A DNA stretch of 64,000 nucleotides from Legionella anisa (GTDB lineage Bacteria; Pseudomonadota; Gammaproteobacteria; Legionellales; Legionellaceae): positions 1 to 64,000 of the forward strand of contig NZ_LNXS01000001.1 of NCBI RefSeq assembly GCF_001467525.1. The letters run 5' to 3'. Of the stretch, positions 54,731 to 58,505 are shown piece after piece. Each line of letters opens with the position of its first letter. Positions within the stretch are counted from its first letter, which is position 1. Under the pieces are notes generated by a model. That model saw only the letters and a program-made list of their open reading frames with translations, was not told the DNA's origin and ran no database searches. A program made the translations under genes and the position numbers.

Positions 54731-55654
54731 TTAACTTTTGAGTACATTGCTGGCATTACTATGATACGCATCTACGATATAATCCACAAAAACACGATGC
54801 TTTCGCGACATGTACTTCGGTCTTGGATGCACGAGCCACACAGACATCGGAAGGGGTCTAAAATCTGCCAAAACCTCTACAAGCACGCCATTTTCAATGG
54901 ATTTCTGAAAAAAATAACGAGGCAAAAATGCAATTCCAACTCCCTGTAATACAGCCTCTAATACCAAAGCGGAATTATTGAGACGTAAATTTCCATTTAT
55001 CGAAATTGAGCAGACTTTATCTCGAGAATTAAAAAACCACACATCCACTTCATATAAATTAATTTGATGAATAATGCAATTATGTTTCCTTAAGTCATCA
55101 GGTTTTAGAGGTATACCATATCGTTTTAAATAATCTGATGTAGCACAGCATATCATTTGGTGATCGATTAATTTTTTTGACTGTAGGGTGCGTGTATTTA
55201 TTTCTTTATATCGAAAATAAATATCATAAGAATCGTCAATCAAATCAGGAAAAATATTACTTTTTATAAATTGAATTGTAATTTGCGGGTAGTCCGCTAG
55301 AAACCGAGCAATGATTGGCAGTAGTTCAAAATAGCCTGAATAAACAGAAACGGATAGATTGAGTGTTCCGGAAGGCTCTTTTATGTTGTTTGCGATACCT
55401 CCTCTTAATTCCGCAAGAATTGTAGGAATATTTTGACAATGCTTATAACAATATTCACCGTATTTTGTCAGTGAAAATCGTCGGGTATTTCGCTTCAACA
55501 AGGTCACTCCAAGCTTTTCTTCAAGATTGGCCACTTTTCGAGTAACAGAAGCAGGAGAAATTTTTAATACAGATGCTGCCCTATAAAAACTATTACTATC
55601 TACGACTTGAAGAAACACTTCTATATCTGACAACACAGCAATCCATTGTTTCAT
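54731..55654 (-). CDS. LysR-type transcriptional regulator of halogenase operon
   Basis: A 307-aa LTTR. Winged helix at 8-65: IEVFLQVVDSNSFYRAASVL, ISPASVTRKVANLEEKLG and VTLLKRNTRRFSLTKYGE. The rest is the periplasmic-binding-like effector domain (GTLNLSVSVYSGYFELLP, GVGIAFLPRYFF). It reads away from the halogenase gene with a 93-base gap to its start, the classical LTTR arrangement, so it probably activates that operon when it binds a pathway intermediate or amino acid. Shine-Dalgarno is weak. Confidence 0.9.
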   Translation of the reverse strand: MKQWIAVLSDIEVFLQVVDSNSFYRAASVLKISPASVTRKVANLEEKLGVTLLKRNTRRFSLTKYGEYCYKHCQNIPTILAELRGGIANNIKEPSGTLNLSVSVYSGYFELLPIIARFLADYPQITIQFIKSNIFPDLIDDSYDIYFRYKEINTRTLQSKKLIDHQMICCATSDYLKRYGIPLKPDDLRKHNCIIHQINLYEVDVWFFNSRDKVCSISINGNLRLNNSALVLEAVLQGVGIAFLPRYFFQKSIENGVLVEVLADFRPLPMSVWLVHPRPKYMSRKHRVFVDYIVDAYHSNASNVLKS

Positions 55655-55689
55655 TTTTGAAAAAATATATTACGAAAATATCGGATTGA

Positions 55690-55701
55690 TTGCTATAGCA
55701 A
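55690..55701. promoter_or_regulatory. LysR box candidate
   Basis: TTGCTATAGCAA, a perfect 12-bp palindrome, lies in the gap between the LysR gene and the halogenase. A wider CGAAAATAT...ATATTTTTCG partial inverted repeat surrounds it. This layout fits a LysR recognition site; binding is inference. Confidence 0.5.
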
Positions 55702-55747
55702 AATAATGGAAGAATATTTTTCGAAAATCATAACAAAAGGACTCATG

Positions 55748-56512
55748 ATGAATACATTAAATGACACTATTTCTTCTTATAGTAATGCTGCATTTACGGC
55801 GAAAAAAATTCGAAAGTTGCGTGAAGAATTTTCTCGTCATGGCATAGTCAAAATTCCTGATATTGTCAGTGAACAACTCAAACAAAATATTCACAATGAA
55901 ATTTACGGTTTACTCGAAAACTATGCCGAACGTCGCGATCTTCTTTTAAAAACTACTGACAATACTCCGCGATACTTAAGTGTGGTGCGTAGTGAATTAA
56001 TCGAAGAGCAGAGCAAGATGATTAGGGAAGTTAGAGAATCAGATGCACTATTGCAATTTTTAGAGAAAATTACCCAAGAGAAATTATTAACCCATGTCAA
56101 AGAAGATGAAAAATTTGTGATTACCAAGCAAGAGTTCAGCGGTGATACTCATGGTTGGCACTGGGGAGATTATAGTTTTGCTTTGATCTGGATCGTCGAA
56201 ATGCCACCAGTTGATTGTGGTGGAATGTTACAATGTGTCCCTCATACAAGTTGGGATAAAGAAGCGCCTGACTTATATCAATATTTTTGTGATAACCCCA
56301 TTTACACTCATTCATTTGTTCCCGGCGATGTGTACTTATTGAAAGCCGATACGACCCTACATCGAACAGTACCCTTAAGATATGATGCAACTCGCATTAT
56401 GCTCAATATGACCTGGGGCAGCATACGCGATCAGGATAACCCCTTTCTATCCGTTGATGATCGATGGTGGGATAATTTAAATGCACAGGCTGCACTCCAT
56501 GTTCACAACTGA
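55748..56512 (+). CDS. BesD-like Fe(II)/2OG amino-acid halogenase
   Basis: A 254-aa protein from ATG 55748 (AAAGGA six bases before; a second ATG at 55745 and a frame start at 55706 are less likely). The segment GDTHGWHWGDYSFALIWIVE holds the first iron ligand H138 with G140 two residues on, i.e. H-x-G; hydroxylases have H-x-D here. The distal His H205 lies in DTTLHRTVPL and an Arg follows (R216). Halogenases of the BesD family lack the Asp so that chloride can bind iron; as I recall BesD uses His137/Gly139/His204, the same spacing. BesD-type enzymes chlorinate free amino acids such as lysine or ornithine. It starts a three-gene operon with an SHMT-like gene (32-base overlap) and a LysE exporter. 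Confidence 0.75.
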   Translation: MNTLNDTISSYSNAAFTAKKIRKLREEFSRHGIVKIPDIVSEQLKQNIHNEIYGLLENYAERRDLLLKTTDNTPRYLSVVRSELIEEQSKMIREVRESDALLQFLEKITQEKLLTHVKEDEKFVITKQEFSGDTHGWHWGDYSFALIWIVEMPPVDCGGMLQCVPHTSWDKEAPDLYQYFCDNPIYTHSFVPGDVYLLKADTTLHRTVPLRYDATRIMLNMTWGSIRDQDNPFLSVDDRWWDNLNAQAALHVHN

Positions 56513-57809
56513 TCGAACTGTCCATGATCCTGCATTATTGCAACAAGCTCAACGTGATTTAATGCATTGCGAATCATATAAGAGCATGCAGGATCTGCTA
56601 CTGGATTTAATTCAAAAAAATGATACTTGGCGAACTAAAAAGTGCATCAACTTAGTTGCTGCTGAAAGCCCCATGAGTCGACTTGCCCGCTCCTTACTTG
56701 CATGTGATTTAAGCATGCGCACTGCGGGCGGGCATATTGGCAAAAAAAATCGGAATTTCATGGCAACCCAATACATTGATCAACTCGAATCCATGTGTCA
56801 TGTTTTATTAACAAACGTGTTTGAGTGTCATTATTGTGAACACCGATTATTGGGAGGAACACAAGCGTGTCACGTTGTGTATTCCTCTCTCATAAAACCC
56901 AACGATACACTGATTACCGTTATGCCTGAGCATGGCGGTGATTCAAGTAATTGCAGTCAAAGTATGCCTGGATTATTAGGTTTAAACATTATTCCAATGC
57001 CTTTCTTACCGGATCAACTGACTGTTGACCTAAATCAACTTGAATATTTAGTTTGCCGTTATCGACCACAATTAATCGCATTAGGATTTTCAATTTGCTT
57101 ATTTGAACAACCCTTAAAAGAAATCTGCACCATTGCCCAAAAATATAAGGTGCGCGTCTTTTATGATGCGGCACATGAACTTGGTTTAATTGCTGGTAAA
57201 TGTTTTGCAAATCCGTTTAAACAAGGCATCACTGTGATGAGTGGTTCCACTGGAAAAACATTCAGCGGTCCTCAAGGCGGGTTATTGCTTTGGGATGATG
57301 ATGAATTAATTCAGCCCATTGCAAGTACTGTATTTCCCAATTTTGTGGGTACCTATCAATTAAATCGAGTCGCGGCATTAACATTAACTACATTGGAGCT
57401 TCAACAATATGGTGAACGTTATATGGCACAAGTGGTACATAACGCAAAAGCATTAGCGATGCATTTATATGAGCTTGGGATTCCAGTGTTTGCTAAAGAA
57501 AAAAATTACACTCAAACCCATCAAGTTTTAATTAATGCTAAACAATATGGTGGAGGATTTGTTGCTGCGAATCAATTGGAGGCCTGTAATATCATTGGAA
57601 ATCACGTCAATATACCAGGCGATAATAAACCATTACAGGGGTTACGAATAGCCACCACAGAGATAACGCGACGAGGGATGAAAGAAACACATATGCGAAA
57701 GATTGCCGAATTCATTTATCGGGCACTTGCAACACATGAACCTGCACATTATATAGCGCACGAAGTAAGTCTTTTAAGTGAAGCGTTTCAAGAAATTTAT
57801 TACTGCTAA
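56481..57809 (+). CDS. SHMT-like PLP-dependent enzyme
   Basis: A 442-aa fold-type I PLP protein of the serine hydroxymethyltransferase/aldolase group. NLVAAESPMSRLARS is the SHMT 'N.IASEN..S' start, followed by TAGGHIGKKNRNFM-QYIDQLE (from the GYPG..YY..YVD region). The cofactor Asp is in VFYDAAHELGL and the Schiff-base Lys in SGSTGKTFSGPQGG (SHMT: THKTLRGPRGG). A HERE-like 'E' near ESPMS may bind the substrate. Folate residues seem not kept, so retro-aldol, racemisation or beta/gamma-elimination on an amino acid is likelier than one-carbon transfer. Its first codons overlap the halogenase gene by 32 bases, so they are coupled. ATG 56499 is an alternative start. Confidence 0.75.
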   Translation: MHRLHSMFTTDRTVHDPALLQQAQRDLMHCESYKSMQDLLLDLIQKNDTWRTKKCINLVAAESPMSRLARSLLACDLSMRTAGGHIGKKNRNFMATQYIDQLESMCHVLLTNVFECHYCEHRLLGGTQACHVVYSSLIKPNDTLITVMPEHGGDSSNCSQSMPGLLGLNIIPMPFLPDQLTVDLNQLEYLVCRYRPQLIALGFSICLFEQPLKEICTIAQKYKVRVFYDAAHELGLIAGKCFANPFKQGITVMSGSTGKTFSGPQGGLLLWDDDELIQPIASTVFPNFVGTYQLNRVAALTLTTLELQQYGERYMAQVVHNAKALAMHLYELGIPVFAKEKNYTQTHQVLINAKQYGGGFVAANQLEACNIIGNHVNIPGDNKPLQGLRIATTEITRRGMKETHMRKIAEFIYRALATHEPAHYIAHEVSLLSEAFQEIYYC

Positions 57810-57905
57810 AAACCTAACTTTGAAGATTGCTCTATCAATTTATGATTTCAGGTTTCAAATGGGATGACACGTTGCGAATTACAGACAAATAAGGATATTA
57901 CTACT

Positions 57906-58505
57906 ATGACTTATCTTTTAATGACATCAATTTTATTAAATATTATGCCTGGACCTGCTATGTTTTATGTGGCTCAGCAAACACTAAGCCGCAATTCACG
58001 CGCGATTGTACTCTCCATTATAGGCATCGAATTCGGAACTTTATTGCATATAGTAGCATCCACTGCGGGATTAACATGTGTTCTTGCACAATGGGGTTCG
58101 TTTCCTATTATTTCAAAATATGTCAGTGCATGTTTCTTAATTTATCTTGGTGTTTCACAATTAATAAAACCCAAGGAAATCAGCTTTTCCTCACCTTCCA
58201 AATCGATATTTTTAAAAGGCACCTTAATTAATGCACTTAACCCCAAAATTATTCTTTTTTTTATGACCATACTTCCACAATTTATGAGTTCTAATCGCAG
58301 TTATACCACGATTCACATCATTTGGATGGGATTATTGTTTGGCTTTTTTGGCGGTGTTGTTAATATTATTTTTAGTTTTGTTATCAATGCATTACTCAAT
58401 ACAACGCAGGATACTGCCAAAGTATTTATAATTATTAAAGGGTTAACACAACTGATAAGTTGTTTCTTTATTTTATTAGGAATTATCTTTATATGGATGC
58501 GTTAA
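57906..58505 (+). CDS. LysE/RhtB-family amino-acid exporter
   Basis: A 199-aa inner-membrane exporter with about six helices. It starts at ATG 57906 (AAGGAT eight bases before), giving MTYLLMTSILLNIMPGPAMF, where the PGP motif near residue 15 is the LysE/RhtB signature; an upstream ATG at 57864 is not favoured. LINALNPKIILFFMTILPQF is the second family signature. LysE proteins expel basic or modified amino acids using proton exchange. Position directly after the halogenase and the PLP enzyme (96 bases after the latter) suggests export of the operon's product. Confidence 0.9.
   Translation: MTYLLMTSILLNIMPGPAMFYVAQQTLSRNSRAIVLSIIGIEFGTLLHIVASTAGLTCVLAQWGSFPIISKYVSACFLIYLGVSQLIKPKEISFSSPSKSIFLKGTLINALNPKIILFFMTILPQFMSSNRSYTTIHIIWMGLLFGFFGGVVNIIFSFVINALLNTTQDTAKVFIIIKGLTQLISCFFILLGIIFIWMR

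What the first reader, a model, noticed from the sequence alone, without database searches (positions are those of the whole stretch)
54731..58505. BesD-like halogenase, SHMT-like PLP enzyme and LysE exporter in one operon, facing a LysR gene
The oxygenase at 55748-56512 has H-x-G (H138, G140) with a distal His at 205. That is the iron site of the BesD radical halogenases, which chlorinate free amino acids; hydroxylases have Asp in place of Gly. The next gene overlaps by 32 bases and encodes an SHMT-like PLP enzyme. A LysE-type amino-acid exporter follows and a LysR gene reads away from a shared gap. Together this predicts an operon that chlorinates an amino acid, converts it with the PLP enzyme and exports the product. 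In the known bes cluster a halogenase works with an HDO and a PLP enzyme; here the HDO lies 22 kb away in another operon. I do not know of a Legionella system of this description.
Basis: partly seen in the sequence, partly recalled or inferred. Interest (0 to 1): 0.95.

Follow-up and report, generated by a model that had tools for sequence, protein, structure and literature searches.

The report
Legionella lysine-chlorinating and ring-forming operon
This Legionella genome carries a small gene set that probably puts chlorine on the amino acid lysine, spends it to close a tiny ring, and exports the product, much as some Pseudomonas bacteria appear to do.

Summary
At 54731-58505 lie a LysR gene and a divergent hal-SHL-lysE operon (SHL = SHMT-like PLP enzyme). 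The oxygenase is a BesD-family lysine halogenase: best fold match HalA with lysine bound, best sequence match BesD. The iron- and lysine-binding residues checked all agree, and three residues that separate halogenases from the lysine hydroxylase are of halogenase type. The PLP enzyme is not a working SHMT by its residues: it keeps the PLP lysine, Asp200 and Arg363, but in 15 of 15 family members, window included, E57, Y55, Y65, H126 and H228 are replaced. All 17 SHL-bearing genomes found (8 Legionella, 8 Pseudomonas, 1 Paraburkholderia) have hal-SHL-LysE, though most were found through hal; searched both ways, 7 of 45 Legionella genomes have both and 38 neither. Best reading: C4 chlorination of lysine, PLP-driven chloride loss closing a cyclopropane, export. 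A 2024 paper of fitting title exists (seen only as a reference; content recalled as the Pseudomonas pazamine pathway). So: a new genus for a known kind of pathway. The distant HDO is unrelated.

The parts
54731..55654 (-). LysR-type regulator gene, divergent from the operon
   Evidence: PF00126 and PF03466; 5 of 5 named Legionella loci have a homologue there at 61-81% identity; 8 of 8 Pseudomonas/Paraburkholderia loci have a gene of cluster C5 instead, of which one was annotated (AsnC/Lrp type)
55655..55747 (.). shared promoter region with a conserved ATATATTAC block and an AAAGGA ribosome-binding site
   Evidence: alignment of window and five named Legionella loci
55748..56512 (+). BesD/HalA-type lysine halogenase gene (254 aa)
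   Evidence: PF23169 HalD 302 bits; BesD 6nie E 6.6e-78; fold match HalA 9oes TM 0.93; halogenase-type residues G140, I147, N220
56481..57809 (+). SHL: SHMT-derived PLP enzyme gene (442 aa), overlaps hal by 32 bases; PLP lysine K259
57864..58505 (+). LysE/RhtB-type amino-acid exporter gene (213 aa; alternative start 57906)
   Evidence: PF01810 91.7 bits; a LysE-like gene follows SHL in the 16 other genomes too, in two of them (L005, L007) only partly within the fetched DNA

Best explanation
A horizontally spread operon beside a LysR gene that makes and exports a strained (cyclopropane) amino acid from lysine by cryptic chlorination. Step 1: the Fe(II)/2-oxoglutarate enzyme chlorinates free L-lysine, most likely at C4 (enzyme type shown by sequence and fold; substrate and site inferred from BesD/HalA). 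Step 2: the SHMT-derived enzyme forms the PLP aldimine of 4-chlorolysine, K259 removes the alpha proton, and the carbanion attacks C4 and expels chloride to close a three-membered ring, as ACC synthase does with SAM (inferred; the analogy is recalled). Loss of Tyr55, Glu57, Tyr65 and His126 would make room for a side chain and remove the aldol/folate chemistry (residues shown; consequence inferred). Step 3: the LysE-type protein exports the product, perhaps as an antimetabolite (inferred). This is the paz (pazamine) kind of pathway, as I recall it.
For: Halogenase. SHL: PLP-core residues kept 15/15 and SHMT catalytic residues lost 15/15, against 19/19 kept in canonical SHMTs, mostly of the same genomes (site list from a passage of PMC7916883). 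A canonical glyA is present elsewhere in the genome, so SHL is not the housekeeping enzyme. Coupling: 7/45 both and 38/45 neither in Legionella, searched with each gene separately; a Pseudomonas genome found through SHL alone (G139) also has hal and LysE; gene order kept in 17/17; hal-SHL distance correlation r 0.95 over 91 pairs, which shared descent alone also raises. [quoted passage not shown] 2024; title seen in the reference list of PMC13185094; pazamine, PazA and PazB recalled). The natural Thr at Tyr55 in Legionella SHL equals an engineered SHMT variant solved with D-serine (6tgh title).
Against: No activity was measured. The PazA/PazB sequences and the 2024 paper are not held, so identity of SHL with PazB rests on recall and elimination: among the neighbours of the other Pseudomonas halogenases that I annotated there is no PLP enzyme, but not every neighbour was annotated. 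The window SHL is only 40-44% identical to those of Pseudomonas/Paraburkholderia and differs at some PLP-site positions (T or A at Tyr55; T, M or L at Ser99), so the product could differ. Thr at Tyr55 also occurs in a divergent SHMT-like protein without this context (L088). The exporters of the two groups are distant (25% identity). The BesD/HalA clade also holds the lysine hydroxylase 7jsd, so the tree alone does not prove halogenation. SHL active-site loop 74-93 is modelled with low confidence.
Confidence: 0.62

Rival explanations
1. Gamma-elimination or replacement: SHL takes chloride from C4 of PLP-bound chlorolysine by a second deprotonation at C-beta (BesB-like chemistry, recalled, on another fold), giving an unsaturated or gamma-substituted amino acid that is exported.
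For: Same genes and leaving group; the SHL-specific invariant Asp154 in place of His126 (15/15, against 0/19 SHMT and 0/21 sister-group members) could be a base.
Against: Needs a second base; nothing here favours it over direct ring closure, and a published PLP pathway by cryptic halogenation makes strained amino acids (title only).
Confidence: 0.2
2. The exported product is chlorolysine itself or a chlorinated derivative; SHL acts on another position (racemisation, decarboxylation, transfer) and leaves chlorine in place.
Against: A good gamma leaving group beside a PLP carbanion is chemically prone to leave; SHL has lost the aldol/folate residues.
Confidence: 0.12
3. SHL is a working SHMT or threonine aldolase/transaldolase that only happens to lie there (one-carbon or beta-hydroxy amino acid metabolism).
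For: PF00464 match above its cut-off; NCBIfam SHMT and fluorothreonine transaldolase matches, all below their cut-offs (273 of 335 and 171 of 650 bits); fold nearest to SHMTs, with the transaldolase ObiH also listed.
Against: E57, Y55, Y65, H126, H228 replaced in 15/15; canonical glyA present; presence exactly tied to the halogenase in 45 Legionella genomes.
Confidence: 0.04
4. The oxygenase is a lysine hydroxylase, not a halogenase.
For: 47.6% identity to the BesD-like hydroxylase 7jsd, which lies in the same clade.
Against: Gly140, Ile147 and Asn220 are of halogenase type where the hydroxylase has Asp, Asn and Val.
Confidence: 0.02

Closest known systems
Pazamine-type pathway, PazA/PazB (Sosa et al. 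2024, Angew Chem e202319344; title seen, content recalled)
   Same: As recalled: radical halogenase on lysine C4 plus a PLP enzyme that uses chloride as leaving group, in Pseudomonas. Pseudomonas homologues of both window genes lie side by side
   Different: Legionella version has a LysR gene where the Pseudomonas loci have an AsnC/Lrp-type one, a distant LysE, and 40-44% identity in the PLP enzyme; whether SHL is PazB could not be tested
bes cluster of Streptomyces cattleya (BesD, BesC, BesB)
   Same: Halogenase 51-52% identical to BesD; 14 of 15 active-site positions compared are the same, the exception being Met for Ile at chain position 220
   Different: No HDO of clusters C4 or C8 in the 13 SHL loci; PLP enzyme of another family (recalled for BesB); no match of the window LysE within 14.7 kb around besD
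HalA (PDB 9oer/9oes, lysine bound)
   Same: Closest fold, TM 0.93, 47% identity in Foldseek
   Different: Groups with actinobacterial sequences in the tree; partner genes of HalA not examined
Serine hydroxymethyltransferase, M. jannaschii type (4uqv, 4bhd)
   Different: Catalytic acid/base residues and His126 replaced
Coronamic acid CmaB/CmaC (recalled; a title on cryptic chlorination in cyclopropyl amino acid synthesis was seen in the references of PMC12766721)
   Same: Cryptic chlorination followed by cyclopropane closure
   Different: Carrier-bound substrate and a non-PLP cyclase (recalled)

Membership tests
BesD-family free amino acid halogenases | His-x-Gly iron site with distal His, no Asp/Glu third ligand | tested here: met
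   H138, G140, H205; hydroxylase 7jsd and L008 have Asp
BesD-family free amino acid halogenases | Lysine-binding residues (R77, E123, H137, D143, D239, W241 in PMC13244439, passage seen) | tested here: met
   All six identical in the window protein; the hydroxylase 7jsd has them too, so they speak for lysine, not for chlorination
BesD-family free amino acid halogenases | NCBIfam equivalog cut-off for BesD itself (450 bits) | tested here: not met
   309.8 bits: related, but not called a BesD equivalog
BesD-family free amino acid halogenases | Chlorination of a free amino acid | not testable with these tools
   needs an enzyme assay
Serine hydroxymethyltransferase | PLP lysine, Asp200, Arg363 | tested here: met
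   K259, D229, R389; 15/15
Serine hydroxymethyltransferase | Tyr55, Glu57, Tyr65, His126, His228 at the active site | tested here: not met
   T81, G83, F93, D154, G258 in the window; replaced in 15/15 members, kept in 19/19 SHMTs; one further divergent row, L088, set apart (it keeps E57 and H126 but not Y55, Y65 or H228)
Pazamine (paz) pathway | Adjacent lysine halogenase and PLP enzyme genes (recalled) | tested here: met
   window and 16 further genomes
Pazamine (paz) pathway | Homology to PazA and PazB of P. azotoformans | not testable with these tools
   paper and sequences not held
Pazamine (paz) pathway | Cyclopropane product from lysine | not testable with these tools
   needs product analysis
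bes terminal-alkyne pathway | BesC-type HDO beside the halogenase | tested here: not met
   no gene of HDO clusters C4/C8 in the 13 SHL loci; window HDO at 33453-34241 has no significant similarity to the BesC-region protein (E 4.4)

The most novel reading that the evidence does not exclude
The Legionella enzyme pair has diverged to make a different strained or unsaturated amino acid from the Pseudomonas one, exported as an antimetabolite against microbial competitors or protozoan hosts: as far as my searches went, the first halogenase-based small-molecule pathway pointed out in Legionella, spread as a four-gene cassette with its own LysR.
Probability: 0.25. Interest if true: 0.72.

Novelty: new member of a known kind. 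Interest (0 to 1): 0.5.

Why it matters
It places radical amino-acid halogenation and, by inference, cyclopropane amino-acid synthesis in a genus of intracellular bacteria for which I found no such report. It gives a sharp sequence signature (an SHMT fold with His126 changed to Asp and Glu57 to Gly/Ser, beside a halogenase) with which to look for PLP enzymes of cryptic halogenation. And it suggests that the enzyme pair is the unit that spreads, between Legionella, Pseudomonas and Paraburkholderia, while regulator and exporter are exchanged.

Tried and rejected
The window HDO sits in a cluster bounded by two DUF3419 genes, shows no significant similarity to the BesC-region protein (E 4.4) or to one cyanobacterial HDO (E 4.6), and SHL loci lack HDO genes of clusters C4 and C8.

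SHMT or transaldolase function: disfavoured on residues. Earlier residue tables had errors: six rows took a wrong reading frame (L072, L073, L079, L080, L081, L086), and the columns named H126, H129, T226 and R363 were misnamed. One search, with numbering checked against 1dfo, replaces them. One search has mixed offsets and is not used for counts.

Plasmid carriage of SHL: none in 72,556 plasmids at E 1e-50; the one hit is a sister group. That sister group (INT) was met in 10 of 299 Burkholderiaceae genomes at E 1e-80 and among weaker hits of the class and phylum samples. Two of its loci were annotated: serine dehydratase and ABC transporter in one, an amino-acid-type binding protein in the other. 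No halogenase lies in any of 21 INT loci, most of them only about 4 kb long. Not pursued.

Foreign base composition: not seen; GC of the four genes (0.33-0.40) is near that of the window (0.37).

The LysR pN/pS figure is invalid: the L. steigerwaltii lysR, read from the window's start, has two stops at codons 3-4.

Papers: 10 searches. No held paper describes a Legionella halogenase of this kind (8 papers with both words, judged from the listing). Neugebauer 2019, Marchand 2019, Kissman 2023 and Sosa 2024 are not held. PMC8407142, PMC10187165, PMC13244439, PMC8072733, PMC7916883, PMC13185094, PMC12766721 and PMC13108848 were seen as search passages only; PMC12123629 gave no passage. The VIA-align list (top 50 entries) held SHMTs and one threonine transaldolase; ACC synthase was not in it, which shows nothing, as the chains were Foldseek's own top 1000.
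Full report
What is there. The window lies in a 4.40-Mb genome of 55 contigs; by the halogenase its nearest named relatives are Legionella steigerwaltii, L. wadsworthii and L. gresilensis (83-87% identical).

The halogenase. Pfam assigns HalD (302 bits). The best solved sequence is BesD (E 6.6e-78), then HalA, with the lysine hydroxylase 7jsd lower (E 3.8e-71). 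Over aligned residues identity is 51.9% to BesD, 49.2% to HalA, 47.6% to the hydroxylase, 42.5% to HalB and 40.1% to HalD; all five were compared over the part printed by HMMER only. A model (pLDDT 88.6) matches HalA bound to lysine with TM 0.93. The six residues that a simulation paper assigns to lysine binding in BesD (PMC13244439, passage seen) are identical in the window; the hydroxylase has them too. Three positions separate the halogenases from the hydroxylase: Gly/Asp, Ile/Asn and Asn/Val. All three are halogenase-like in 14 of 14 SHL-linked halogenases compared, window included. By the titles and the alignments, two of them are the sites of HalA variants I151N and N224V in the PDB. The protein does not reach NCBIfam's cut-off for BesD itself (309.8 of 450 bits).

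The halogenase tree. In a tree of 55 rows (four partial or broken rows, L043, L052, L059 and L060, left out) the window sits in a 27-row group (100/100 support, rooted on the distant L008) with BesD, HalA, the hydroxylase 7jsd, two further actinobacterial sequences, five other Legionella, seven Pseudomonas, one Paraburkholderia, seven cyanobacterial sequences and one gammaproteobacterial MAG. The tool warned of long branches, BesD among them. The six Legionella form one clade (100/100), the Pseudomonas and Paraburkholderia rows another (100/95), the HDO-linked rows a third (94/91); how these join is not resolved. One cyanobacterial HDO partner is 50% identical to the protein encoded after besD in S. 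cattleya, so that branch looks BesD-BesC-like. The search that found these loci used exact peptide patterns including HGWHWGDY, so it favours halogenases over hydroxylases.

Linkage. Of 52 halogenase loci, 13 hold SHL; in the other 39 no SHL was found within the fetched stretch, of which several are short. Removing loci fetched twice, SHL is known from 17 genomes: 8 Legionella with the window, 8 Pseudomonas, 1 Paraburkholderia. In the 16 others hal, SHL and a LysE-like gene follow each other as in the window (in L005 and L007 the LysE gene is only partly within the fetched DNA). Most of these were found through the halogenase, so that count is biased. The fairer tests are these: 45 Legionella genomes searched separately with each gene, 7 with both and 38 with neither; 298 Pseudomonas genomes searched with SHL, 2 hits, one the query genome and one new, both with the halogenase; 299 Burkholderiaceae genomes, 1 true SHL, which is the query genome, plus 10 of the sister group. 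In samples of 369 class and 398 phylum genomes no SHL beyond the window's own was found at E 1e-85, with only the best few candidates per genome scored; the 10 other hits are of the sister group. Pairwise distances of hal and SHL correlate (r 0.95 over 91 pairs of 14 taxa), as shared descent alone would also make them.

Mobility. Between L. longbeachae and L. santicrucis the fetched 12.8-kb stretches match at 90% over about 4995-8684 only, that is, over the four genes, with no match in the flanks. The window shares flanking genes with L. wadsworthii, on the left (a patatin and a beta-1,3-glucanase-like protein) and further off on the right (about 60.9-61.7 kb), so these two share the site; it shares none with the other four named loci. 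Regulator and exporter differ between Legionella (LysR) and Pseudomonas/Paraburkholderia (cluster C5, AsnC/Lrp-type in the one annotated; a distant LysE). So the enzyme pair is the constant unit.

How it most likely works. Lysine is chlorinated at C4; SHL makes the PLP quinonoid, and the alpha carbanion displaces chloride to close a cyclopropane; the exporter removes the product. I wrote ring closure down as the hypothesis. [quoted passage not shown] 2024) surface; a half-remembered name may have helped before that. I recall its content as pazamine made by PazA and PazB of Pseudomonas azotoformans, with an effect on plant ethylene; none of that text was seen here. The Pseudomonas loci found here are probably that pathway or its close kin. 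Among neighbours of other Pseudomonas halogenases annotated are transporters, HDOs, an ATP-grasp ligase, a semialdehyde dehydrogenase and others, but no PLP enzyme; not all neighbours were annotated.

Shown and inferred. Shown: genes, families, residues, linkage, order, mostly silent substitutions, cassette borders in one species pair. Inferred: lysine as substrate, C4 as site, SHL acting on chlorolysine, ring closure, export, biological role.

Verdict. The system is best read as a Legionella member of a known kind of cryptic-halogenation pathway: of real interest for the genus and for enzyme discovery, but not a new category.

Noticed in passing
32470-36163: Cluster of two DUF3419 proteins around a heme-oxygenase-like iron enzyme and a 267-aa protein without Pfam match; unrelated to the halogenase operon.
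   Followed up: partly
42712-51672 (-): 2986-aa protein with a SecA-like helicase stretch (TGEGKS; by eye) inside a very long protein.
   Followed up: no
27808-28738: Transposase-like protein in two overlapping reading frames, perhaps of the IS5 kind (by eye).
   Followed up: no
53145-54608: Beta-1,3-glucanase-like (GH64) protein beside the operon, shared with L. wadsworthii.
   Followed up: partly
L068, L090-L099, L101-L110: Sister group of SHMT-like proteins (E57 to Leu, Y65 to Glu or Asn, H228 to Tyr); no halogenase in the fetched stretches; function unknown.
   Followed up: partly
L009:4986-5906 (-): L. steigerwaltii lysR, read from the window's start, has two stops at codons 3-4, so its start codon is probably further in.
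   Followed up: partly
L015, L020-L024, L026, L027: Seven cyanobacterial and one gammaproteobacterial MAG halogenases sit beside a gene of HDO cluster C4; the one compared is 50% identical to the BesC-region protein: likely BesD-BesC pairs outside Streptomyces.
   Followed up: partly
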